64,000 nucleotides of DNA, from NCBI GenBank assembly GCA_018822845.1, contig JAHJJD010000044.1, forward strand, positions 1 to 64,000. The letters run 5' to 3'. The stretch comes from Gammaproteobacteria bacterium (lineage in GTDB: Bacteria; Pseudomonadota; Gammaproteobacteria; Thiotrichales; Thiotrichaceae). A program made the position numbers and the translations under genes. The notes beneath the pieces are model-generated. The model worked only from the letters and a program-made list of their open reading frames with translations, had not been told where the DNA came from and did no database searches. Of this stretch, positions 23,883 through 59,015 are shown piece by piece. Within the stretch, counting starts at the first letter, position 1. Each line of letters opens with the position of its first letter.

Positions 23883-23988
23883 ACCCCTCACCCCCTAGCC
23901 CCCTCTCCCTCAAGGGGCGAGGGGGAACAAGAGGACTCCCATCTTTAGCCCCTCTCCCCTTGAGGGAGAGGGGTTGGGGTGAGGGGTA
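23883..23988. repeat. Full-size (~106-base) double-hairpin palindromic element
   Basis: Left half ACCCCTCACCCCCTAGCCCC plus TCTCCCTCAAGGGGCGAGGG, centre AACAAGAGGACTCC, right half AGCCCCTCTCCCCTTGAGGG ending GGGGTGAGGGGT. The halves are inverted copies of each other, and each folds on itself. It separates the oxidoreductase gene from rnfC. Confidence 0.92.
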
Positions 23989-31520: not shown

Positions 31521-31626
31521 AACCCCTCACCCCCTAGCCCCCTCTCCCTCAAGGGGAGAGGGGGAATAAGAAAACTGGCCTCTTAGCCCCTCTCCCCTTG
31601 AGGGAGAGGGGTTGGGGTGAGGGGTA
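31521..31626. repeat. Full-size (~106-base) double-hairpin palindromic element
   Basis: Nearly the same as 23883-23988: ACCCCTCACCCCCTAGCCCC at the left, CAAGGGGAGAGGGGG, centre AATAAGAAAACTGGCCTCTT, and the inverted right half ending TTGGGGTGAGGGGT. It lies between pilT and pilU and may shape the mRNA. Confidence 0.93.
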
Positions 31627-48482: not shown

Positions 48483-50039
48483 CTACAAGATAACAGCCAG
48501 TGTTGCCGCAATCAGCAACACCAGATAGCGGGGCTGCGTGAGCAGTTCTTCCGCCAGATCAAGATAGACGCCTATGCGGCGCAGGTAGCCCATCATTTTG
48601 CCTTCGTCTTTCTGTAGCAGTAGACGGTCTTCCAGAGCCTGCAATTGTTCCGCTGCCCATTGGGTGAGCTTGCCGAGCAGCCCGGAGCCAGTGCCGACGC
48701 CGCTTTCCAGCCGCAACTTGCCTTGCTGGAATGCCTGCATTTCCGCCAGTGTGGACAGCATGTTGCTGTGCGAGGGCGTGCCGGTCAGACGGTCAATCAC
48801 GTAGGTGTCGAAGGTTTGCGCTTCATGTGCCAGCGCCTGGGTCGGGCGTACCAGCAGCCAGTTCTCCAGCGGTACCAGCCAGAAGCGCTGGAGCGCGGCA
48901 GTATACAACCAGCGCCGCTTGCGTAGCCACTCCGGAACCGGTTTGGCTGGCTCCCAACCGGTCTGTTGCAGGAATGAGGGTGAATGCAGGAACTGGTAGG
49001 CCCGCCAGATGGCATGCAGCCCCATGTGGACGGCAGCGAAAGTGTAAAAGCCTAGCCCGATTTCCACCAGCATCAGCCCGGTTTGCTGCTGGGTGGAAAA
49101 GATCAGCGAACTCTTGATGTCGGTTTGCACCTGTACACCCAGCCAGCCGTACAGGGTGGTCAGCACGCCAATCAGCACCAGCCCGTTGCCCAGCAGCGGA
49201 ACCTGTTCCAGCAAGGGCTGGATGCGCAGCAACAGGTAAATGCCTGCATGCACCATGACGGAACCGTAGAACACCGCGCTGGATGGGGTCGGCCCTTCCA
49301 GCGCGCGGGTGATCCAGGCGCAGAACGGGAACTGCGCCGATTTCACCAGTGCTGCCAGCATGAAACCCATGGTCATGATCCCAACCACCATGCCGGACAT
49401 GTCGGGTTTGTCGCCGAACAGCACATTCCATTCCACACTGCCCAGCCAGACGAAGCCGATGAACATGCCGAACAGGTAGCCAGTGTCGCCGAAGCGGTTG
49501 GTGACGAAGGCGCGGGTTGCCCCTTCCACTGCCGTTTCACGCTGCCAGGAATAGGCTATCAGCATGTAGGAGCTGATCCCTGCCATTTCCCAGCCGATAA
49601 AGCCCAGCAGGGCGCTACCTGACAGCACGATCAGCAGCATCGCGCAGGAAAACAGCGATATGACGATGAAAAAGCGCTGAAAACCGGCCTCGCGGTGCAG
49701 GTAGTTGACCGAAAAGCGCGTCACCACCAGCGTAATGGTCGCCATCACCACGCCGAATGTCAGGCTGAGCGTATCCAGCATCAGGCTGATGTTGGCCTGA
49801 TAACCGCCACTTTGCAGCCAGGGAAACAGCACCACATGGCCGGGCGCGCCGTGGGTGAAATCGTAAATGGCCAGCCCCAGCATCGCCAGCAGGCTCAGGG
49901 TATTGGCGGTGACGGCGACGAACGCGGTTTCGCGCTCGCCCTTTTCCCCCCGGTTCCAGCCGAAGATGAAGCCGATAACAATCCACAGGGCGGAGAGGAA
50001 GGGCAGGCCGGGGATTAGGAGCAATAACCAGTCAGGCAT
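48483..50039 (-). CDS. dabB: DabB, NuoL-like membrane subunit of inorganic carbon uptake (copy 2)
   Basis: A 518-residue protein strongly similar to copy 1 all along (MPDWLLLLIPGLPFL against MPDLFLLLIPGLPLL). The channel glutamate (LGFIGWEMAGISSYMLIAY) and lysine (AALVKSAQFPFCAWITRALE) are present. GGAGG lies 6 bases before the ATG. Its start overlaps the stop of the DUF559 gene by 8 bases, exactly as dabB1 overlaps dabA1. This shows that the original partner in front of it was dabA2. Confidence 0.92.
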   Translation of the reverse strand: MPDWLLLLIPGLPFLSALWIVIGFIFGWNRGEKGERETAFVAVTANTLSLLAMLGLAIYDFTHGAPGHVVLFPWLQSGGYQANISLMLDTLSLTFGVVMATITLVVTRFSVNYLHREAGFQRFFIVISLFSCAMLLIVLSGSALLGFIGWEMAGISSYMLIAYSWQRETAVEGATRAFVTNRFGDTGYLFGMFIGFVWLGSVEWNVLFGDKPDMSGMVVGIMTMGFMLAALVKSAQFPFCAWITRALEGPTPSSAVFYGSVMVHAGIYLLLRIQPLLEQVPLLGNGLVLIGVLTTLYGWLGVQVQTDIKSSLIFSTQQQTGLMLVEIGLGFYTFAAVHMGLHAIWRAYQFLHSPSFLQQTGWEPAKPVPEWLRKRRWLYTAALQRFWLVPLENWLLVRPTQALAHEAQTFDTYVIDRLTGTPSHSNMLSTLAEMQAFQQGKLRLESGVGTGSGLLGKLTQWAAEQLQALEDRLLLQKDEGKMMGYLRRIGVYLDLAEELLTQPRYLVLLIAATLAVIL

Positions 50040-50547
50040 GTTGCGCCTCCGGCGTACCCCTCACCCCTAGCCCCTCTCCCTCAAGGGGAGAGGGGGACAA
50101 GAGGAGGGTTTGTTGGATTGTGATGATTACTGTTGGGAGTTTTTGTTCTACTTGGGTGGCGGTGAAGCGAAGGAATTGGTAGCCGCAGCATTCAAGTATG
50201 TGTTGGCGCTCTTGGTCGCGTTCAATTTGGGTTGCGTGGATTGCGCCGTCTACTTCGACGATCAGGTTTTTTTCGGCACAGAAGAAGTCCACGACAAAAG
50301 CTCCGATGGGTTGCTGGCGACGGAATTTGTAGCCCCCTACTTGGCGGTTACGTAGAGCTTGCCACAAGATAGCTTCGCTTGGGGTGGGAATTTTACGGAA
50401 ATCGCGGGCGCACTCAATCATCCTTTGGTGGAGGTCGGGGGGGGTGGTTAGCCGCTCGCGGGGAGACCCCTCACCCCCTCGCCCCCTCTCCCTCAGGGGG
50501 CGAGGGGGGATAAGAGTGTTTTTACCATCACGAAGTGTGTGCTTCAT
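50032..50547 (-). CDS. DUF559 endonuclease-like protein with repeat-encoded ends
   Basis: A 171-residue protein. The core, about residues 38-145, is DUF559 (PD-(D/E)XK, Vsr-like): TPSEAILWQALRNRQVGGYKF, then FVVDFFCAEKNLIVEVDG with the D...ExD pattern, and a C-terminal strand YQFLRFTATQVE. Residues about 11-27 (IPPRPLRERGRGGEG) and 148-165 (LSPSPLEGEGLGVRG) are encoded by palindromic repeats. The last codons, PEAQHA, match the end of dabA1 (AEVQHA) and are probably the old end of dabA2. It overlaps the NACHT gene by 4 bases and dabB2 by 8. DUF559 proteins are thought to be DNA endonucleases; the true role is unknown. Confidence 0.85.
   Translation of the reverse strand: MKHTLRDGKNTLIPPRPLRERGRGGEGSPRERLTTPPDLHQRMIECARDFRKIPTPSEAILWQALRNRQVGGYKFRRQQPIGAFVVDFFCAEKNLIVEVDGAIHATQIERDQERQHILECCGYQFLRFTATQVEQKLPTVIITIQQTLLLSPSPLEGEGLGVRGTPEAQHA
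50055..50108 (+). repeat. Half-size GC-rich element at the dabB2 side of the inserted cassette
   Basis: TACCCCTCACCCC, then CTCCCTCAAGGGGAGAGGGG and the inner end ACAAGAGGAGGGT. It equals the left half of the 106-base element and encodes the C-terminal tail of the DUF559 protein. It is inverted relative to 54197-54253. Confidence 0.92.
50465..50517 (+). repeat. Half-size GC-rich element at the 5' end of the DUF559 gene
   Basis: ACCCCTCACCCCCTCGCCCC, then CTCCCTCAGGGGGCGAGGGG and the inner end ATAAGAGTG. Same orientation as 50055-50108. It encodes the N-terminal tail of the DUF559 protein. Confidence 0.9.
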
Positions 50548-53500
50548 CGTGGTTTTGTTGCCTCCTCAATGATGGTTTCAATGAGCTCAAAAATTTTGGC
50601 GAAGTTGCTTACGTCAACATCGTTAAACTCTGGAGTTTCCTTTCGGATATTTTCTGCGAAATCGTTTTTACTTAAATCTGCTGGTGACTGTTCATTAGTT
50701 ACCTTGTACCCAACGCGCCGCAAGGTTCTTCCTTGTGCATCTTTTCTGCTTAAATCATTGATAGAGTAGTAGTTTTCGATGGATATGCGATCTTCCGACT
50801 CAATAAGTTGAGGGATGCGTGTAATGAATACGTTGTTGCCGTAGTAAACAAAGCCTCTGTCACTACTATTCTTGACTTTAAATTCATTATTTATTTTGTC
50901 TTCATCTCGGTCAAAAATACAGATGATTAATCGGTTTTGTGGACTTTTAGAGAGTGCCTTGCAGTGATCTAGCATGTGTGCATAGCCCATATGCTCTTCC
51001 GTTTTGCTTAACTCAAGCTTTAGAGTGTTAAATAAACCCTTCTTTTGTAACTTTGGGAGTGCAGCCTCTAGGTGTTTCCAGTCTGTTTTTCCTTCAGTTA
51101 GGATTAATGGCGAGAACTCTTTTTTAACGAGTGCATTATCTGGCTGATTGTTTACAGCACTTTCTTTAGTTGAGAAGTTTCGTGGAATCTGCTGTCGCGT
51201 TTCAAACCATTCATGAGAGTAGTATTTATGACGCTCCCGTAGTTTCAATGCACGTTCGGAGGTGTTGTATTCTTTTCCTTCATCCGTTGATAGCCATTTC
51301 AAAAATCTAGGCCAATCTTCAATGCTGGAAAAATGCGTTATTATCTCTACAAAAAAATTTAAATTACTGGAGTTGTTATTTAATTCAGAAAAAGAATATT
51401 CTATGATCTTTTTGAATCCATGGTTTGGATCGGATTCTGAGGTTTGCTTGGAAATTCCAACCAGTTCATCCTGTAACAGTTTCTCAGATGAAAATGGGTC
51501 GGTTTTTAATAAAAGCACGTCATTTACAAAGGTAAGTGATCTTATCTTATCATCAAGCTCATCCTTTTCTGATTTATAAGCGGGTTTAGATCTTCTAATA
51601 AAATTGCCATGATCCTTATTAAGAGGTGCATTACTTAATGCGAACTTGCCAGAATTTAACAAGTCCAATATAATATATTCGCACTCTGCGTATGATAGCA
51701 ATTTTGGCACAACATCACCCATTGCCTTTATTATTTTGTCTATTTCCTCGTTTAATTCTGATTGGCTGGTGTTGGGAATAATGTATCTGTGAGAAAAAAG
51801 TCCTGATACATTAATATTCAATATATCTCCAATTATCTTTGGAATGCATTTTATTTCGCCTATGGACTTTATTAGTAATGGGATTGCTTTCCTGCCCATC
51901 CTGGGGCTAATTAATTTAATAGAGTCAATAATGGTATTATAATAATCCTCCGGGGTTGCTGTTTCTGATTGGCTCCGCCGGTTAATTCTTTGGGGATAGG
52001 CTGTTACTTCTTCTGTTTCGTTATAATTTATAGCTAGTTCTATTAGAATAAATAATGAATCAACACTTCCGATAAAGCCTAATGCTATAATGTATGCAAT
52101 CTGCTCTAAATAATCATTGCTGTTTTTCAAGTAACTTAAGACTTCTTTTTCAGCATGGCCGGGCGAAATCATTTGTAATGATTTCGCTGCCTCATGAAGA
52201 ATATCAGTGTATAATTTATAGTTACATTGAAAGCCTACCCCACGTCGTTTTGTAAAATGAACTTTGCGCGACCTCTTGCTGTAATAAATTATATTTAGCA
52301 ATGGCTCTATAGCTTTTTCACTTCGAACTATTCCTAATATTTTTGTAGCCATGATTTGAATGGGGGATTTATTATCATTTAATAAAATAATCAAGTCATC
52401 TGAAACTTTATTTGCACTAAAATTTCCAAGTGCCTCAATGGCCTTCAATTGAAAACAAAAAAAGCACTCATTATCAGCATTTTTGGCATTTATGATTTTA
52501 AGAAGAAATCCTCGATGTATATCTGATTTAGATTCTTTCACTATCCAGTTTAGATTGCTGTAAGATAATTCTTCCAGTATTGGTTGCATTGAGAATATTT
52601 CAATAATGTGATCTATTTGTTCAAATCTCCATAGTGTAATCATAATATCTGTAATTACAGTGCCAGAAAGGTGATCGCAGTTTGTTTTTAGACAGTGAGT
52701 CAAATAGTTATGCGATGATTCGCAATTAACGCTGATGATGGTATCAAAGCAACTCTGCCATGTATGATATTGAACTGTTTCTTGCCTAAGAATATTCACC
52801 ATCTTTTCTACTGCGTACTTCGTCCCATTTGCAGCCATCAACTCAAGGTAAGTTTTTTTATTTTCTTTTTCCACGCGAGAATGAAAAATCTTAAAAAGAT
52901 TTTTTTCATTCTCACCTTTACTCCTGCCTGAAAGCTTTGCGGCGAGAGTAATATCAACCTTTATGGCTAATTTTACAATACACCCTGCTTTTTCAGCATC
53001 TGAAATAAAATCCATTAATATAAAAATGGATTCCGTCCACTTGATAGGATTCAAGAAATGAGCACATAACTGATCATCAGATCGAGAGTCCAAGTGCCGC
53101 AGCAACCACTCGGCGGCATAGTATTCTTGGAAAAACTGATGTGAAAATTCAATCTTATTCTTTTCTGTAGCATGTTGCAGTAAATGTAGATTTAACGCAT
53201 CATCTAGCCATTGTTTAACTCTTATTGGTGTGTCAGAGAGACCCCTTCCCCTGAAGCATTGTTCTAACCATCTCTCTGCATCAGTTCGTGTTACTTGTAA
53301 CCAAAGATTTTTTCCATTTCCGCCAGCATCCATCATGAAAAATGCAAGTTCTTGTAATATTTCATCGCGGAAATCAAAGAACTTGCTATGCTGAGGAGTT
53401 ACTGTGTCTTTAGGCTTGTGGTTTTCATACAAACCATGGGTAAATTGACGAAATAATTCACCTTGGTTGTGAGGTATATTCCCTGATGATTGATATGTAG

Positions 53501-54188
53501 TAGATAACATATCTAGCAATAATGGTCTATCAGTAAGTTCTTTGATTCGACCACGTAGAGATTGTAGCATTCCAAATGCCAACTCATCGCCTAATCGCTT
53601 CTTGATAAACTCTTTTACTTGGTCTTCTGCCAAAGGCAGCATGTAAAAGCGCACATCTATACCAAGATAAGTTTCTACTCCTAACTCCCTGCTGGTAAAT
53701 ATCATTGGTATATGAGCAAAGTCTTTCCTCCAGTCATATAGTCCAGAACCGGATGGTAGCTCATTCAAACCGTCAAGTAATAACAAGAAATGATCTTCAT
53801 CTAGTAAATCAGTAATATTTTCAGGGTTAACTCGATAGCGGGGTACACTAAGTGCTTTCGCCAATAATTGGTCAATCGTTGTATTTTCATCTAACCGCCT
53901 CAACTCCAGTAAAACTGGAATTCGTTGATTAGTATTCTGTAAACATCTATCAGCTTCTTCCCGCAGTAGACGCTTGAGAGCAGTTGACTTTCCGGAGCCA
54001 GGTTTTCCTAATAACACTACATGCTTTTCTGCGTGTTCACGTAGAGCGGTTAACACATCACTACTTTCACGGTGATGGTTTCCGTTTTCTACCAACTCAA
54101 CCTGTAGCGTGGAAATATAATTCTCTCCGCAAGTCTTAGCCTCCGGCTGATTTAAGACAAATTCTAGATACCGTTCACGATCAAACAA
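50544..54188 (-). CDS. NACHT-helical repeat-TOPRIM protein, candidate NLR-like immune nuclease
   Basis: A 1214-residue protein from visibly AT-rich DNA unlike its neighbours. NACHT NTPase: Walker A GKPGSGKST at 61-69, Walker B FLLLLDGLNELP at 134-145, FTSRE at 164-168, RPLLLDML at 221-228 and FSHQFFQEYYAAEWLL at 348-363. A long helical, HEAT-like region follows (about 380-1000). The C-terminus has TOPRIM signatures: ILTEGKTD at 1029-1036, IFDRDED at 1091-1097 and SIENYY near 1136, as in OLD-type nucleases. Inference: the repeats sense a trigger, NACHT oligomerises and TOPRIM cuts nucleic acid. The start overlaps dabA2 by 8 bases, and the stop overlaps DUF559 by 4. Bacterial NACHT proteins are known antiphage proteins; this architecture and site look unusual. 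Confidence 0.85.
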   Translation of the reverse strand: MFDRERYLEFVLNQPEAKTCGENYISTLQVELVENGNHHRESSDVLTALREHAEKHVVLLGKPGSGKSTALKRLLREEADRCLQNTNQRIPVLLELRRLDENTTIDQLLAKALSVPRYRVNPENITDLLDEDHFLLLLDGLNELPSGSGLYDWRKDFAHIPMIFTSRELGVETYLGIDVRFYMLPLAEDQVKEFIKKRLGDELAFGMLQSLRGRIKELTDRPLLLDMLSTTYQSSGNIPHNQGELFRQFTHGLYENHKPKDTVTPQHSKFFDFRDEILQELAFFMMDAGGNGKNLWLQVTRTDAERWLEQCFRGRGLSDTPIRVKQWLDDALNLHLLQHATEKNKIEFSHQFFQEYYAAEWLLRHLDSRSDDQLCAHFLNPIKWTESIFILMDFISDAEKAGCIVKLAIKVDITLAAKLSGRSKGENEKNLFKIFHSRVEKENKKTYLELMAANGTKYAVEKMVNILRQETVQYHTWQSCFDTIISVNCESSHNYLTHCLKTNCDHLSGTVITDIMITLWRFEQIDHIIEIFSMQPILEELSYSNLNWIVKESKSDIHRGFLLKIINAKNADNECFFCFQLKAIEALGNFSANKVSDDLIILLNDNKSPIQIMATKILGIVRSEKAIEPLLNIIYYSKRSRKVHFTKRRGVGFQCNYKLYTDILHEAAKSLQMISPGHAEKEVLSYLKNSNDYLEQIAYIIALGFIGSVDSLFILIELAINYNETEEVTAYPQRINRRSQSETATPEDYYNTIIDSIKLISPRMGRKAIPLLIKSIGEIKCIPKIIGDILNINVSGLFSHRYIIPNTSQSELNEEIDKIIKAMGDVVPKLLSYAECEYIILDLLNSGKFALSNAPLNKDHGNFIRRSKPAYKSEKDELDDKIRSLTFVNDVLLLKTDPFSSEKLLQDELVGISKQTSESDPNHGFKKIIEYSFSELNNNSSNLNFFVEIITHFSSIEDWPRFLKWLSTDEGKEYNTSERALKLRERHKYYSHEWFETRQQIPRNFSTKESAVNNQPDNALVKKEFSPLILTEGKTDWKHLEAALPKLQKKGLFNTLKLELSKTEEHMGYAHMLDHCKALSKSPQNRLIICIFDRDEDKINNEFKVKNSSDRGFVYYGNNVFITRIPQLIESEDRISIENYYSINDLSRKDAQGRTLRRVGYKVTNEQSPADLSKNDFAENIRKETPEFNDVDVSNFAKIFELIETIIEEATKPR

Positions 54189-57100
54189 GTGATTGACCCT
54201 CCTCTTGTCCCCCCTCTCCCCTTGAGGGAGAGGGGGTTAGGGGGTGAGGGGTAACGGCGTTAGCCGTCACCAACGCCGGTTCCAGATGCCCATAATCCCC
54301 CGCATACCAGTCCACAGATCTTGCAACCAACGCCAATTCTTTCCGTTCCCCCTCCCAGCGCATAAACCCCTTTTCCGGCACAAACAAATCAATCGCCGCC
54401 GAATCCGGGTCTTTCACCGCCACCACGATCCAGCCACCGCCGATCAGTTCCTGCAAGGGCGGCTGGCGTGCGTAAATTGCGCCGACCGTGGCGATTTTGG
54501 CTTCCACGATGACCAGCAGGCGCATTGGCTCGTGGATTTCGATCATCTGCGCAGGCAGACCGGTGCGCAGGTCGCTGAACACGCCCTCCATCACGCCGAA
54601 CAGCCCGGTCAGGTTGTGGGTTACTTTCGTCCCCGCGCCGTAGCGCTCGTTGTTGACGGTGGAGAAATAGTATTCGAGGCTGATGCCCGCCCCCACAGGC
54701 CCCGCGTTCAGCAGAATGTTTTCGAGAATGCTGCCATCCGGGTCACGGGTGCAGTCGTAGGAAATCAGGAAACAGCGCCGGTCAAGGAAACTGCTGCGGG
54801 TTACGGCACGCCGCCCGATCAGCGCGCAGGCGTTGGTGGCGTGGCCCAGTTCCGGACGCGGCTGGCTGTAGTCGAAAGCGCGCCCGGCAATGTGCGCCGC
54901 CGCCTTCGCCAGCGATGGATTGCGTGGGGCAGAAGCCAGCTTGCGGCAGCGTTCGTGGGCGGAATGGCGGGCAGCTTCGGCCAGTTCCGCCTGCAAGTTG
55001 TGCAGCCTGCCCCGCAAGCCAGTCGGCACCTTGTCAGTATCGAACCACGGAATCTGCTCGTCGCAGGTATCGTGTTCCGCCCCTACAAACCAGGTATCAG
55101 CGGGGATTGGCAAGCCTTGCTGCGCCAGCAATGCGCGTACTGCCGGGCGATTGGCCATCGAGGCAAACACCCGTGCGTTCGGCCCGCTGTGCCGCCCACT
55201 GCACGCGCCGCATTCATACGCTGCTGCGTGCGGGTTGTTCTGGCTGGTGGAGCCATGCCCCATGATCACCACCAGCGGCGCAAACCCGTCAGTCAGCCCG
55301 ATCATGCGCAGGAAGCCGCCAACCTTGTCCGCCTGTTCCTGATCGGTAAAGCCCATCTGGTTGTGCTGGCTGGAACGTTCCGCATCGGGTTGCAGCGCGA
55401 TGAATTCGAGTTTGGTCGGAATCGGCAAATCGGTTTTCTGCCGCAGTTTGCTGACCCACTGGCCGAAACCCAGCGGCATGTAGGATTTGCCCAGCATGAT
55501 GCCGAGGGAGAGCGGTGCGAGTGCCATCTGGCTGACCGTGCCGAGTACCAGATTGTGGCGGGTAACGTGGTTCAGCCCGGCGAAAAAGCGCTTGCGCCAG
55601 GTCACGCGGCGTTCGTGCTCATGGCGCAGGGTGGCGGCTTCATCGGCGGGAACTTCGCGCACCAGATGTTCCGGGGTAACGGGCACGGGGCAAAGTTTGG
55701 TGACGGTTTTGTCATCAAGTCCCTGCCAGTTCATCGGCAGGTTGAAAAAGGCCGCAGCACCCAGGGTTTCGACCTGCGGGTTGAGCTCTTCCAGATGGCG
55801 GCGAATGCCTTCCTCACGGTCATCCATGCAGAACACCAATTGCGCCTCAGGACGCTGATCGCGCTTGCGCCATGCACCGCGCCCGTGGTTGCTGGCGATG
55901 GCATTGAACACCTGTTCACGGTAATGGCGTTCGTAGGCTTGCAACCAGAGGAAACCGGCGTGCTCCTCATCCAGCGCTGCCAGACAGGTGAAAAGGGTGT
56001 CGAGTTGCCCGCGCTCCAGACTGCACACAGTGGTGGCGTCCATCCCCAGATGCTGCGCCAGCAGGAACAGCCGCCAGCCATGGTCATAGACGTACCCCTC
56101 ACCCCCCAACCCCCTCTCCCTCAAGGGGAGAGGGGGAGCAAGAAAAGATTCTCTTAGCCCCTCTCCCCTTGAGGGAGAGGGGTTGGGGTGAGGGGTAAAT
56201 ACTTGATTCCATGTCCAGATCTGGTGGGCAAGCTCTTCCCAATGCTGGTCTTCGTACACACGCGGGCGGCTGTGGCGGATCAGTTGTTGCGCCGGGGTCA
56301 GCAGGTATTCCGGCAGGCGGCGGTTGAAGGTGTAGTAGCGCACCAGAAATTCTTCCGGATGGCGGCGGAAGCGCCCGCGAATGTCGCCGAGATTGGCTTC
56401 CATCAGCCAGATTTTACGGCACAGGCGGCGCGCGAACAGGTGTTCCATGCTCAGCCGTACAGCGAGGTAATCAAGCATGTCGGCTTTGGGGGCTGCCTCG
56501 CCTACATATCCGGGGTGCAGATGCCGCCACAGGAACATGCCTGACCAGCCGGGCAGTTCCAGCGCCAGTCGCTCCAGATAGGCGTCGCGGTGTTCGGTGG
56601 GAATGCCGATGCGTTGCAGTTCGGCGATGATGGTTTGCTGTGGGTCGGTGGGCAGGGAGTTGAGGTGTTCCACCCAGTCCGGCAACCCTTCCAGCACTGG
56701 CGTCAGGTCAGTTTCGCTGGTGGCACGCCACGCATCAAAAAAGCCGGGAGCCACTGCGCCGCCATGCCAGGCTGCCATGCCCTGATCCAGCCAGGATGAT
56801 GTCTGCCGCAACAGCAGGGGGCGGATGTCATGCAGGATGTCTTCGCCGGTCAGTGCCAGCAGCAGGCCGCGCAGGGTCAGTTCCTTGCCAACCTTGTGGG
56901 TCAGCTCCAGCAACTGCGTGTGGCTGTCATGCTTTACCTGTTGGTGGATATTGGCCGGTTCATCCAGTTGGGTGGCAAACACGCGGGCGGCGCGTTCCGG
57001 GGAAAAGTTAAACAGCTCTTCAGAATGCAGCAGGTAATGGTCGAGTTGTAGCGCCTGCATGCAAGCTGCCCACAGTTCGCCGTGCGTTTCCAGTGCGTGG

Positions 57101-57519
57101 TTTTCTTCCACCTGCCAGACAAACTGGCTGGGGCTGATCGGCTTGATCGGGTAACTCATGGCGATGCGGTAAATGTCGCCGCGTGTTACCTCGCCTCCGG
57201 CATGGGTGAAGACAGGGGCACGGCTGTCCAGACTGGCGTCTTCTTCCAGCACCGCCTGCAAGTCATCTGCTGTAATGCGGCCACGCTGGAATTGTTCGCG
57301 GAATTTTTCCACCGGCCAGTAACCGCTGGAACCGGTAATGTCATGTGCGACTTTCAGCGCTGCGGGGAATGGTAAATGCTGGAAGCCATGCAGGGTATTG
57401 TGATGCACGAAATCACGCAGGGGCGCTTGCCCCGGCAGCACATGTTCCAGGTGTTCCAGCAAATGCCCGAAACTGTGGGAACCATCATGCTGGCCAGCGT
57501 GACCCTGTGCCCGGCTCAC
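54181..57519 (-). CDS. dabA: DabA, inorganic carbon uptake subunit (copy 2), with repeat-derived insert and altered C-terminus
   Basis: A 1112-residue DUF2309 protein. Zinc ligands: cysteine 564 and aspartate 566 in VFCMDDREE, histidine 755 in IMGHGST, cysteine 770 in YECGACSGR. I start at GTG 57519, which overlaps the upstream TGA and has AGGAGG 9 bases before it; the longer frame to 57804 lies inside the upstream gene. Residues about 441-475 come from a full palindromic element (56093-56197) read in frame (TPHPNPSPSRGEG...), inserted where copy 1 has only LAPESVIPVGSDI. The C-terminus after YGHLEPALVTAN is also repeat-encoded because a cassette was inserted there. The core is intact, so it may still work. 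Confidence 0.9.
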   Translation of the reverse strand: MSRAQGHAGQHDGSHSFGHLLEHLEHVLPGQAPLRDFVHHNTLHGFQHLPFPAALKVAHDITGSSGYWPVEKFREQFQRGRITADDLQAVLEEDASLDSRAPVFTHAGGEVTRGDIYRIAMSYPIKPISPSQFVWQVEENHALETHGELWAACMQALQLDHYLLHSEELFNFSPERAARVFATQLDEPANIHQQVKHDSHTQLLELTHKVGKELTLRGLLLALTGEDILHDIRPLLLRQTSSWLDQGMAAWHGGAVAPGFFDAWRATSETDLTPVLEGLPDWVEHLNSLPTDPQQTIIAELQRIGIPTEHRDAYLERLALELPGWSGMFLWRHLHPGYVGEAAPKADMLDYLAVRLSMEHLFARRLCRKIWLMEANLGDIRGRFRRHPEEFLVRYYTFNRRLPEYLLTPAQQLIRHSRPRVYEDQHWEELAHQIWTWNQVFTPHPNPSPSRGEGLRESFLAPPLPLRERGLGGEGYVYDHGWRLFLLAQHLGMDATTVCSLERGQLDTLFTCLAALDEEHAGFLWLQAYERHYREQVFNAIASNHGRGAWRKRDQRPEAQLVFCMDDREEGIRRHLEELNPQVETLGAAAFFNLPMNWQGLDDKTVTKLCPVPVTPEHLVREVPADEAATLRHEHERRVTWRKRFFAGLNHVTRHNLVLGTVSQMALAPLSLGIMLGKSYMPLGFGQWVSKLRQKTDLPIPTKLEFIALQPDAERSSQHNQMGFTDQEQADKVGGFLRMIGLTDGFAPLVVIMGHGSTSQNNPHAAAYECGACSGRHSGPNARVFASMANRPAVRALLAQQGLPIPADTWFVGAEHDTCDEQIPWFDTDKVPTGLRGRLHNLQAELAEAARHSAHERCRKLASAPRNPSLAKAAAHIAGRAFDYSQPRPELGHATNACALIGRRAVTRSSFLDRRCFLISYDCTRDPDGSILENILLNAGPVGAGISLEYYFSTVNNERYGAGTKVTHNLTGLFGVMEGVFSDLRTGLPAQMIEIHEPMRLLVIVEAKIATVGAIYARQPPLQELIGGGWIVVAVKDPDSAAIDLFVPEKGFMRWEGERKELALVARSVDWYAGDYGHLEPALVTANAVTPHPLTPSPSRGEGGQEEGQSLV
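54197..54253 (-). repeat. Half-size GC-rich element at the dabA2 side of the inserted cassette
   Basis: Read on the minus strand: TACCCCTCACCCCC, then CTCCCTCAAGGGGAGAGGGG, and ACAAGAGGAGGGT. It is the inverted partner of 50055-50108 and encodes the current end of DabA2. Confidence 0.92.
56093..56197. repeat. Full-size (~106-base) element embedded in frame in dabA2
   Basis: TACCCCTCACCCCCCAACCC, CTCCCTCAAGGGGAGAGGGG, centre AGCAAGAAAAGATTCTCTT, then the inverted half ending TTGGGGTGAGGGGTA. It replaces about 35 codons' worth of sequence without breaking the frame. Confidence 0.93.
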
Positions 57520-59015
57520 TGCATGATTCCTCCTGACAGTTGTGCCATGGAGCCAGCCGTGAACTGGCTGATCAGGTGCTGTACGGAAACATCCATCATG
57601 TCCAGCAGTGGCGTGGGGTAGAAGCCCAGCAGCATGGTGCCTGCGATCAGGCTGCCTGCCGCCACCATTTCCAGCGGATGCAGGTCGTCCACTTTCTCCA
57701 TGTCCAGCCGTACCGGGCCGGTGTAAAGATGCTTGACCGTGCGGATACTGTAGGCCGCCGTTACCAGCACGCCCAGCGACAGCAACACAATCATCCATCC
57801 CCAAGTGCTGAAACCGCCGATCAGCACATGCAGTTCCGCCACGAAACCGGCGGTACTCGGCAGCCCCACCCCACCGACGAAGGCCAGAATAATCAGGAAG
57901 GCGAAACGCGGCGTCACCTTGATCAGTGAACCGTAGTCGTTGATGTCGCGGGTATGGGTGCGCTCATACAGCAGGCCAATCAGCATGAAAGTCGCACCTG
58001 CCACCAGACCGTGCGCCACCATCTGGTACACCGCGCCGGTCATGCCGTACACGTTCAGGGTGGAAATGCCGATCAGCACCACCCCCATGTGACTGACGGA
58101 GGAATAGGCGATCATCTTTTTCATGTCACTTTGTCGCCAAGCCAGCAACCCACCGTACAGCAAGCCAATGACCCCCAGCGTGAACAGCACGCCCTGCATG
58201 GCCACTGCCGCCGCAGGCAGGATTTCGATCACGCGCAACAGGCCATATGAACCCATTTTCAGCAGGATGCCGGACAGCAGGATGCTCACCGGGCTGGGTG
58301 CTTCCACATGCGCCAGTGGCAGCCAGCCGTGCAGGGGGAACAGCGGCATTTTCACCCCCAGGCCGATCAGCATGCCGACGAAGATCAGCACCTGTTCCGT
58401 TGCCCCCAGATGCTTTGCGCCTTCTGCCATCGCCGCGAAGGTAAAGGAATGGGAAGGGGTGGCGTCAAACAGCACCAGCAACGCCAGCAGCATGAAAATG
58501 GAACCGCCCATGGTGTACAGCACGAAATTCAGCGCTGCCGTTTGCCGGTTTTTGCCGCCCCAGCGGTCGATCAGGAAGAACAGTGGAATCAGCACCAGTT
58601 CCCAGAACACGTAGAACAAGCCCCAGTCCTGCGCCACGAACACGCCCATGGTGGCCGCTTCCAGCAACAACATCAGCAGGTAATAGCCTTTGACGTGATG
58701 CGTAATCATGTGCGAAGCCAGCAGCGCCATCAGCACCAGCAAGGTAGTCAGCAGCACCAGCGGGAAGGCAAGGCCATCCACCCCGAGGGAAAAGGATGTG
58801 CCGAGTTGTTCGTTCCAGACAATGCTGGTGTTCAACTGGATGGCAGCGCTGGAAAAATCGACCTGGGTCGCAAGCCCGGTGGCATAAACCAGGGTTAATA
58901 CCGCCACCAGAATGGCAGTGTTGCGTATCAGGGAAACACGTTCAGGGGGCAGCAACGCTACCACCAAAGCACCCAGGACGGGCACAAGCAAGAGCAGGAT
59001 TAAAGGATGATCCAT
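57516..59015 (-). CDS. NuoM/ND4-like proton-pumping subunit, first gene of the Dab operon
   Basis: A 499-residue protein with about fourteen helices. Channel residues are present: glutamate in LFYVFWELVLIPLFFLI, lysine in LGVKMPLFPLHGWLP and lysine in LLKMGSYGLLRV. Its stop overlaps the GTG start of dabA2, and AGGAGG for dabA2 lies inside its last codons. It is probably the promoter-proximal gene; the 172-base space to the hydrolase gene stop at 59188 would contain the operon promoter, but I find no convincing boxes. Together with two DabAB pairs and two more NuoM homologues it forms an extended carbon uptake or ion-coupling locus. Confidence 0.88.
   Translation of the reverse strand: MDHPLILLLLVPVLGALVVALLPPERVSLIRNTAILVAVLTLVYATGLATQVDFSSAAIQLNTSIVWNEQLGTSFSLGVDGLAFPLVLLTTLLVLMALLASHMITHHVKGYYLLMLLLEAATMGVFVAQDWGLFYVFWELVLIPLFFLIDRWGGKNRQTAALNFVLYTMGGSIFMLLALLVLFDATPSHSFTFAAMAEGAKHLGATEQVLIFVGMLIGLGVKMPLFPLHGWLPLAHVEAPSPVSILLSGILLKMGSYGLLRVIEILPAAAVAMQGVLFTLGVIGLLYGGLLAWRQSDMKKMIAYSSVSHMGVVLIGISTLNVYGMTGAVYQMVAHGLVAGATFMLIGLLYERTHTRDINDYGSLIKVTPRFAFLIILAFVGGVGLPSTAGFVAELHVLIGGFSTWGWMIVLLSLGVLVTAAYSIRTVKHLYTGPVRLDMEKVDDLHPLEMVAAGSLIAGTMLLGFYPTPLLDMMDVSVQHLISQFTAGSMAQLSGGIMQ

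What the first reader, a model, noticed from the sequence alone, without database searches (positions are those of the whole stretch)
50053..54253. A DUF559 + NACHT-TOPRIM cassette inserted inside a carbon-uptake operon
Between dabA2 and dabB2, which belong together, lie two genes with no link to carbon uptake: a 1214-residue NACHT protein with a C-terminal TOPRIM nuclease signature and a DUF559 endonuclease-like protein. They overlap each other by 4 bases and their neighbours by 8 bases each, so they are co-translated with the Dab genes. The NACHT gene is strikingly AT-rich. NACHT proteins are known antiphage sensors in bacteria; NACHT joined to TOPRIM and paired with DUF559 is not an arrangement that I recognise as described. 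The sensor would be constantly made with a housekeeping operon, which is attractive for an immune guard.
Basis: partly seen in the sequence, partly recalled or inferred. Interest (0 to 1): 0.92.

Follow-up and report, generated by a model that had tools for sequence, protein, structure and literature searches.

The report
Hairpin-ended mobile element carrying immune gene
A 4-kb piece of DNA bounded by inverted hairpin repeats, holding an NLR-like immune gene and a small Vsr-like (DUF559) nuclease gene, has inserted between two genes of a carbon-uptake operon, and it appears to belong to a widespread and so far unrecognised family of DUF559 elements that settle between genes of bacterial operons.

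Summary
In detail: a NACHT-HEAT-TOPRIM gene (AT-rich) and a DUF559 gene lie between dabA2 and dabB2 with 8-, 4- and 8-nt overlaps. They form an insertion whose ends are inverted copies of a palindromic repeat scattered in dozens of copies through this Thiothrix genome. Seven relatives keep the empty dabA2-dabB2 junction; three genomes have it filled, one with NACHT deleted but DUF559 kept. The same pair, with another NACHT tail and 47-bp perfect inverted ends, splits potB/potC in another species. In sampled Pseudomonadota, DUF559 genes (not Vsr genes) are flanked by such palindromes, genomes with DUF559 are rich in them, and DUF559 sits between genes of housekeeping operons (murC/murB, carA/carB, glyQ/glyS, rsmG/parA). 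The TOPRIM is real, but its closest solved fold is the retron Eco2 effector, an RNase, not OLD/GajA. Best reading: an immune sensor carried as cargo on a hairpin-ended mobile element that DUF559 mobilises, expressed by reading through its host operon. Mobilisation by DUF559 is inferred from association; a Y1/RAYT transposase acting in trans is not excluded. An immune guard wired to carbon uptake is not supported.

The parts
54196..54252 (.). Left terminal inverted repeat (dabA2 side): outer box ACCCCTCACCCC plus hairpin CCCCTCTCCCTCAAGGGGAGAGGGG; encodes the new tail of DabA2 and lies just before the NACHT start
   Evidence: I2: 40 nt, 85% complementary to 50057-50096; I4: 18 nt, 100% to 50092-50109; longest perfect stretch 26 nt
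50544..54188 (-). NACHT-HEAT-TOPRIM protein, 1214 aa (cargo, probable antiphage sensor)
53679..54020 (-). NACHT NTPase domain (residues 57-170); Walker A K67, Walker B D139 invariant in three homologues
50547..51116 (-). C-terminal TOPRIM (residues 1025-1214): TEGKTD (E1032) and FDRDE (D1093, D1095); fold like retron Eco2 effector
50463..50516 (.). Third, internal copy of the palindrome, coding for the N-terminus of the DUF559 protein
50032..50547 (-). DUF559 (Vsr-like, PD-(D/E)XK fold) protein, 171 aa; last residues TPEAQHA correspond to the displaced C-terminus of DabA2 (SPEVAHA in the empty site of G012)
50056..50109 (.). Right terminal inverted repeat (dabB2 side), read through in frame by DUF559
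54181..57804 (-). dabA2 (host gene, 3' end displaced; true start probably further downstream, Pfam DabA begins at residue 117)
48483..50039 (-). dabB2 (host gene)
56095..56195 (.). Solo ~100-bp two-hairpin element of the same family, inserted in frame inside dabA2
23884..23986 (.). Solo two-hairpin element of the same family
31523..31624 (.). Solo two-hairpin element of the same family

Best explanation
The cassette is a mobile element. Shown: it has terminal inverted repeats, each an outer box (ACCCCTCACCCC) plus a pyrimidine-purine hairpin, of the same type as ~100-bp solo elements scattered through the genome; it entered a pre-existing dabA2-dabB2 junction; its ORFs read through the repeats, so the stop-start overlaps that couple DabA2, NACHT, DUF559 and DabB2 are kept; it has passed between Thiothrix species. 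Inferred: DUF559, a Vsr-like PD-(D/E)XK nuclease, recognises and cuts the hairpin ends and so mobilises both the element and the solo copies, as RAYT transposases are thought to do for REPs; insertions between genes of operons survive and give expression from the host operon. Inferred: the NACHT-HEAT-TOPRIM protein is immune cargo; the divergent HEAT region senses infection, the NACHT module oligomerises, and the TOPRIM cuts nucleic acid (RNA most likely, by its likeness to retron Eco2), stopping phage and cell.
For: Inverted ends. Repeat family: 62 pattern hits with up to 2 mismatches in the genome, 50 of them exact (its reversed-pattern control also hit, 52 times, because the units are C-rich, but the longer pattern gives 42 against 0); 37 distinct complete solo copies in the stretches fetched, median 100 bp. 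Empty junction in 7 of the 10 Thiothrix genomes with dabA2-dabB2, filled in 3. Filled ones are not a clade: G007 is sister to empty G001 (100/100), and the last ~130 nt of dabA2 in G007 switch from G001-like to G013-like. Second site: potB|NACHT-DUF559|potC with 47-nt perfect inverted ends; DUF559 of dab and pot cassettes form one clade (100/99). DUF559 flanks: palindrome on 35 of 58 sides, far windows 2 of 116; Vsr control 0 of 56. Strong left-right inverted repeats in 22 of 51 DUF559 loci, 0 of 28 Vsr. Genomes: >=5 palindromes in 35 of 48 with DUF559, 10 of 152 without, p 2e-19. In the genus the three dab-cassette genomes have the most copies of this repeat: 42, 39, 14. TOPRIM. dN/dS below 1: DUF559 0.13-0.23, NACHT N-part 0.18 (NG86).
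Against: No movement was seen and I know of no biochemistry of DUF559 on these hairpins. 10 of 152 genomes without a DUF559 hit have >=5 palindromes, and 8 of these 10 have none by HMM either; 13 of 48 with DUF559 have fewer than 5. Palindrome load is also somewhat higher with Vsr by rank test (p 8e-4; Fisher 0.07), so part of the link may be general genome make-up. One genome with a related cassette (G006) has only 4 copies of this repeat. Three of seven plasmid loci, all cyanobacterial, gave no palindrome at my threshold. 3 of 29 phylum loci and 8 of 28 genus loci had none. TIRs of some RAYT-like genes share the motif GGGGWSAS (PMC3733652, section 16 read), which GGGGTGAG fits, so a Y1 transposase acting in trans is possible; I could not search whole genomes for it. 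Defence by this NACHT protein is by homology only; NACHT with this TOPRIM was found only in the own genome and G007, with partial NACHT relatives elsewhere.
Confidence: 0.6

Rival explanations
1. The repeats and the cassette are mobilised in trans by a Y1 (RAYT/TIRYT-like) or other transposase elsewhere in the genome; DUF559 and NACHT are both passengers, DUF559 persisting for another reason (mismatch repair, restriction, addiction).
For: PMC3733652 (section 16 read): RAYT-like genes are flanked by TIRs, some sharing GGGGWSAS; palindrome-rich genomes without DUF559 exist; solo copies have no target duplication of 3 nt or more (0 of 37).
Against: No ORF with the RAYT-type motif I tried in the fetched own-genome stretches, which include enlarged stretches around the unpaired half copies found by exact pattern (crude motif, a part of the genome only). 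DUF559 itself is bracketed by palindromes in many genera and Vsr is not; palindrome load follows DUF559 far more than Vsr.
Confidence: 0.22
2. NACHT-TOPRIM and DUF559 form a two-gene defence system, DUF559 being a second nuclease effector or accessory; the repeats are incidental.
For: 4-nt overlap; the pair is kept together at two sites (dab, pot) by one DUF559 clade; other Thiothrix DUF559 genes lie directly downstream of NACHT-FGE, nSTAND1-FGE or hsdS genes.
Against: In G011 NACHT is reduced to a stub fused to an intact DUF559 under purifying selection; in the phylum sample DUF559 lies beside murC/murB, glyQ/glyS, carA/carB and similar.
Confidence: 0.12
3. The DUF559 unit behaves as an addiction or homing-type selfish gene (cuts unoccupied sites or unmodified DNA) and spreads by recombination of flanking DNA; hairpins are protective or regulatory structures rather than mobility ends.
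For: G007 acquired the cassette with flanking dabA2 sequence, that is by homologous recombination; a DUF559 protein, VsrA of Caulobacter, causes DNA damage when its partner methylase is lost (PMC12907096, passages seen).
Against: A cassette of the same lineage occupies an unrelated site (potB/potC) and solo copies lie at dozens of unrelated sites, which recombination of flanks alone cannot give.
Confidence: 0.06

Closest known systems
REPtrons / RAYT (TnpA-REP) with REP and REPIN repeats; TIRtrons (PMC3733652, abstract, passages and section 16 seen)
   Same: High-copy GC-rich palindromes, often in inverted pairs, between co-directional genes and sometimes inside genes; a gene flanked by the same repeats.
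   Different: The flanked gene here is DUF559 (Vsr-like PD-(D/E)XK fold) and not a Y1 HUH transposase; cargo genes are carried; whether the repeats carry a GTAG or CGTC tag was not tested.
Bacterial NACHT (bNACHT, NLR-related) antiphage proteins (PMC12169576, passages seen)
   Same: NACHT module with Walker A/B and a repeat-rich region expected to sense.
   Different: Order is NACHT - HEAT - C-terminal TOPRIM, whereas that paper describes the effector as N-terminal and the sensor as C-terminal; the word TOPRIM does not occur in its text.
Retron Eco2 (Ec67) RT-TOPRIM (PMC12405507, abstract; PDB 9i2f, 9lm3)
   Same: TOPRIM domain: profile (residues 1017-1210) and fold match.
   Different: Fused to NACHT-HEAT and not to a reverse transcriptase; no msDNA locus was looked for.
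OLD/GajA-type AAA-TOPRIM nucleases
   Same: Viral relatives of this TOPRIM sit at the C-terminus of ~630-670-aa proteins, two of which were scanned and carry AAA_21.
   Different: NTPase is NACHT (STAND), not ABC/SMC-like AAA; OLD/GajA structures were not among the E<=0.001 fold matches.
Vsr / VsrA mismatch endonucleases
   Same: VsrA of Caulobacter contains DUF559 and resembles Vsr (PMC12907096, passages).
   Different: Here flanked by hairpin repeats; sampled Vsr genes (PF03852) are not (0 of 28 loci).

Membership tests
Transposable element with terminal inverted repeats | Inverted repeats at both ends of the insertion | tested here: met
   dab: 40 nt at 85% plus 18 nt at 100%; pot: 47 nt perfect
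Transposable element with terminal inverted repeats | Empty site in relatives and more than one site occupied | tested here: met
   7 empty, 3 filled at dab; pot site; its empty site was not looked for
Transposable element with terminal inverted repeats | Target-site duplication | tested here: not met
   none of 3 nt or more in 37 solo copies (2 nt identical in 8 of 37); at most TA/AA at the two cassettes, which is not decisive
Transposable element with terminal inverted repeats | Encodes a known transposase | tested here: not met
   only the NACHT-HEAT-(TOPRIM) and DUF559 proteins between the ends, no transposase domain
REPtron (RAYT + REP) | Repeat-flanked Y1 HUH transposase | tested here: not met
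   The repeat-flanked gene is DUF559; a RAYT elsewhere in the genome was not tested genome-wide
REPtron (RAYT + REP) | High-copy palindromes of the same type in the genome, in inverted pairs | tested here: met
bNACHT antiphage protein | NACHT NTPase module above Pfam cut-off | tested here: met
   42.1 bits, cut-off 26.7
bNACHT antiphage protein | Protection against phage | not testable with these tools
   Needs expression and challenge
Retron-type TOPRIM effector | TOPRIM fold with E and DxD | tested here: met
   TEGKTDW and FDRDE invariant in 7; pLDDT 77; retron Eco2 E 1.1e-7
Retron | Reverse transcriptase and msDNA RNA | tested here: not met
   No RT domain in the cassette proteins; msr-msd RNA not searched for
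DUF559 (PF04480) | Pfam model above cut-off | tested here: met
   113.2 bits, cut-off 20.6; solved relative 3hrl E 4.7e-19

The most novel reading that the evidence does not exclude
DUF559 defines a large unrecognised class of bacterial mobile elements: a Vsr-like PD-(D/E)XK nuclease between inverted hairpin ends that spawns high-copy two-hairpin repeats, inserts between genes of operons in read-through orientation, and in some lineages carries NLR-like (NACHT/STAND) immune genes as cargo.
Probability: 0.5. Interest if true: 0.93.

Novelty: new variant of a known kind. Interest (0 to 1): 0.8.

Why it matters
DUF559 is annotated in very many genomes with no agreed role (breadth recalled; here 48 of 200 Pseudomonadota genomes had a hit). 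If these proteins move the palindromic repeats that fill many genomes, repeats without a RAYT gain a candidate enzyme: PMC3733652 states that CGTC REPs lack a dedicated transposase (those repeats were not tested here). It also shows a way in which immune sensors may travel: as cargo that slots between overlapping genes of housekeeping operons and keeps the coupling of both neighbours. Both claims can be tested with one cloned cassette and one hairpin substrate.

Tried and rejected
Tried without gain: the scan of genome contigs with the NACHT alignment found one locus only, Thiothrix sp. UBA5583, the same place as G007; class-wide search at E<=1e-12, 1 of 369 genomes, the own one (G007 was not in that sample). 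First TOPRIM model from two sequences was poor (pLDDT 42.6) and not used. First element-length script used too strict a pattern (1 hit) and was redone. An unconstrained hairpin score (near 8.8, far 6.3, p 3e-6) was replaced by the pyrimidine-purine test. An exact-stem scan in the genus found palindromes at 6 of 26 loci; the mismatch-tolerant test at 20 of 28.

Considered and rejected: a Dab-specific immune guard (the pair also sits in pot; DUF559 sits in many operons); vertical inheritance of one insertion alone (tree; flank switch); chance repeats (none in shuffles; reversed-pattern controls; the control is not clean, see evidence).

Limits: genus loci are partly orthologous and not independent. 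One search used 51 loci: 29 phylum loci and 22 of 28 genus loci; six were left out (five near duplicates, and L116, which has no palindrome). The window's own DUF559 is not among its 22, because its left inverted end lies beyond NACHT. Vsr used 28 of 30 (two cut by contig ends). The 29 phylum loci are the best hits of the best-scoring genomes among 48 with hits, not a random draw. Neighbours checked by Pfam were 10 loci chosen by eye from 29 because they looked recognisable. The 7 plasmid loci were chosen from 39 records with hits. The tree warns of long branches where this clade joins the hsdS group. Some dN/dS estimates failed (YN00; TOPRIM dS saturated).
Full report
What is there. On the minus strand the window reads dabA2 - NACHT - DUF559 - dabB2, with 8-, 4- and 8-nt overlaps. 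Pfam confirms all four. The NACHT gene is 37% GC, DUF559 56%, the neighbours 58-62%. The genus is probably Thiothrix: the one hit in named genomes is Thiothrix sp. UBA5583, at the same position as same-genus genome G007.

The cassette has ends. A third copy lies at the start of DUF559. The half-unit occurs 62 times in the 4.0-Mb genome by pattern with up to 2 mismatches, 50 times exactly (the reversed control pattern also hits these C-rich units, 52 times); a longer pattern gives 42 against 0 in the control. Of the 39 places first read, 34 have a facing second half, that is a solo element. 37 distinct complete ones in the fetched stretches have a median of 100 bp and no target duplication of 3 nt or more. 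Several sit between co-directional genes or in frame inside genes, including one inside dabA2.

It is an insertion. Ten of 16 genomes of the genus have this dabB2 (79% identity or more) with dabA2 before it. Seven have the bare junction, for example GCTAACGCCGTTTCACCGGAGG...ATG, and three (own, G007, G011) have the cassette at that point. In the bare junction of G012 DabA2 ends ..SPEVAHA and its stop overlaps the dabB2 start by 8 nt; in the window the matching residues (TPEAQHA) are the tail of DUF559. So the ORFs run through the repeats and the overlaps are kept on both sides (sequence). G011 has lost most of NACHT and keeps a stub fused in frame to DUF559.

It moves. The three filled genomes are not a clade: G007 is sister to the empty G001 with full support. 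The last ~130 nt of dabA2 in G007 match G013 (88-95%) rather than its sister (72-80%), while the rest is sister-like: the cassette came in with flanking DNA by homologous recombination. DUF559 DNA identity among the three is 86-88%, dabB2 78-79%. A second site is potB/potC in G006: 47-nt perfect inverted ends 4.0 kb apart enclose a NACHT-HEAT protein with a different tail, and DUF559 (pot genes named by eye). The DUF559 proteins of dab and pot cassettes form one clade (100/99), so the pair travels together.

DUF559 and palindromes go together in general. Of 29 DUF559 loci from other Pseudomonadota, 26 have a GC-rich pyrimidine-purine palindrome within 250 bp on at least one side, 9 on both, 35 of 58 sides in all, against 2 of 116 windows further out; for Vsr 0 of 56 sides, 1 of 112 far windows. 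In the genus, 20 of 28 loci and 29 of 56 sides. Strong inverted repeats joining both flanks were found at 22 of 51 DUF559 loci and 0 of 28 Vsr loci; direct repeats at 14 of 51. On plasmids of other phyla, 4 of 7 loci showed palindromes, with matching inverted pairs in two Deinococcus loci, and 3, all cyanobacterial, did not. Across 200 genomes, 35 of 48 with a DUF559 hit have 5 or more such palindromes, 10 of 152 without (p 2e-19; by genus 24 of 34 against 5 of 76). For Vsr it is 16 of 49 against 29 of 151 (Fisher p 0.07, rank test p 8e-4). Of the ten exceptions, eight have no DUF559 by HMM and two have weak matches, so palindromes can outlive or do without it. Within the genus the repeat of this cassette is commonest in the three dab-cassette genomes (42, 39, 14; then 12, 9, 8, 6, 4 (G006), and 1 or 0 in eight); G007 has 39 and its empty sister G001 has 6.

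Where DUF559 sits. Reading the flanks of the 29 loci and scanning ten chosen ones by Pfam gave DUF559 between two recognised same-strand genes in eight: rsmG/parA, carA/carB, murC/murB (twice), cbiG/tetrapyrrole methylase, glyQ/glyS, alpha-2-macroglobulin/transglycosylase, and a PD-(D/E)XK nuclease/UvrD helicase pair; in the other two one neighbour was recognised (cobO; glyS). In a Deinococcus plasmid it lies between paaD and paaZ. In Thiothrix it also follows hsdS (four loci) and STAND proteins: NACHT-FGE in the own genome, nSTAND1-FGE in G009 and TIR-nSTAND1-FGE in G015. The Dab operon is therefore one landing place among many.

The cargo. The protein is NACHT (residues 57-170), HEAT, then TOPRIM (1025-1214). 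N- and C-parts are conserved between own genome and G007, the middle is not (DNA identity 74%, 58%, 73%; dN 0.23, 1.08, 0.17), as expected of a sensor under changing demand (inference). The TOPRIM has E1032 and D1093/D1095. A seven-sequence model (pLDDT 77, pTM 0.76) matches retron Eco2 only at E<=0.001 (four chains, E 1.1e-7 to 2.0e-6, TM 0.58-0.66). The Eco2 TOPRIM is an RNase (PMC12405507, abstract). Viral relatives end proteins of 631-667 codons, two of which were scanned and carry AAA_21. In the bNACHTs of PMC12169576 (passages) the effector is N-terminal; here it is C-terminal.

Mechanism proposed. DUF559, with the Vsr-like fold (solved relative 3hrl; the DUF559 protein VsrA damages DNA in Caulobacter when a methylase is lost, PMC12907096, passages), cuts the hairpin ends and so spreads the element and its solo derivatives; this step is inferred from association alone. 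The rival is a Y1 transposase, because some RAYT-like genes have TIRs with GGGGWSAS (PMC3733652, section 16). No ORF with the motif I tried was seen in fetched stretches (crude), but the genome was not searched.

In print. Searches for DUF559 with 'palindromic' (2 papers, unrelated by title and abstract start), with 'inverted repeats' (0), DUF559 alone (14), COG2852 (4), and two of 'very-short-patch-repair endonuclease', 'palindromic', 'transposase' (2,670 papers, 12 listed) listed nothing about DUF559 and repeats; NACHT with TOPRIM and antiphage gave 4 papers, seen as a listing only. The library lacks most subscription journals and bioRxiv, so this is weak evidence of novelty.

Noticed in passing
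L009 4500-8460 (own genome, C22): NACHT-FGE protein (939 aa, Pfam NACHT 3.8e-9 and FGE 1.2e-59) and DUF559 with CCCCCCTTTTGCAAAGGGGGG-type palindromes before, between and after them: possibly a second immune-type cargo with a different DUF559 lineage.
   Followed up: partly
L139 4131-6808 (G009) and L134 5733-9211 (G015): nSTAND1-FGE and TIR-nSTAND1-FGE proteins directly upstream of DUF559; palindromes on both outer sides in L139, only between the genes in L134.
   Followed up: partly
L034 6552-11420 (G004): 1622-aa protein with Sacsin and Schlafen AlbA_2 domains whose C-terminus is a relative of this TOPRIM: the TOPRIM is shared among unrelated sensors.
   Followed up: partly
L116 (G013): DUF559 lies in frame inside a 1107-codon open frame that begins with DUF1156, with palindrome-like peptides at its borders; DUF1156 neighbours also on two cyanobacterial plasmids.
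   Followed up: partly
L147 1465-2991: DUF559 fused in frame to MurB (Pfam DUF559, FAD_binding_4 and MurB_C in one 509-codon open frame), with murC just upstream.
   Followed up: partly
L012 2819-3097 (own genome, C102): Short ORF with a long run of glutamines near a signal-peptide-like start.
   Followed up: no
L033 5620-9144 (G006): The pot-cassette NACHT protein ends in a different tail after an FNAPVTAG motif; a similar FNAP motif precedes the TOPRIM in G007: tails may be exchanged at that motif.
   Followed up: no
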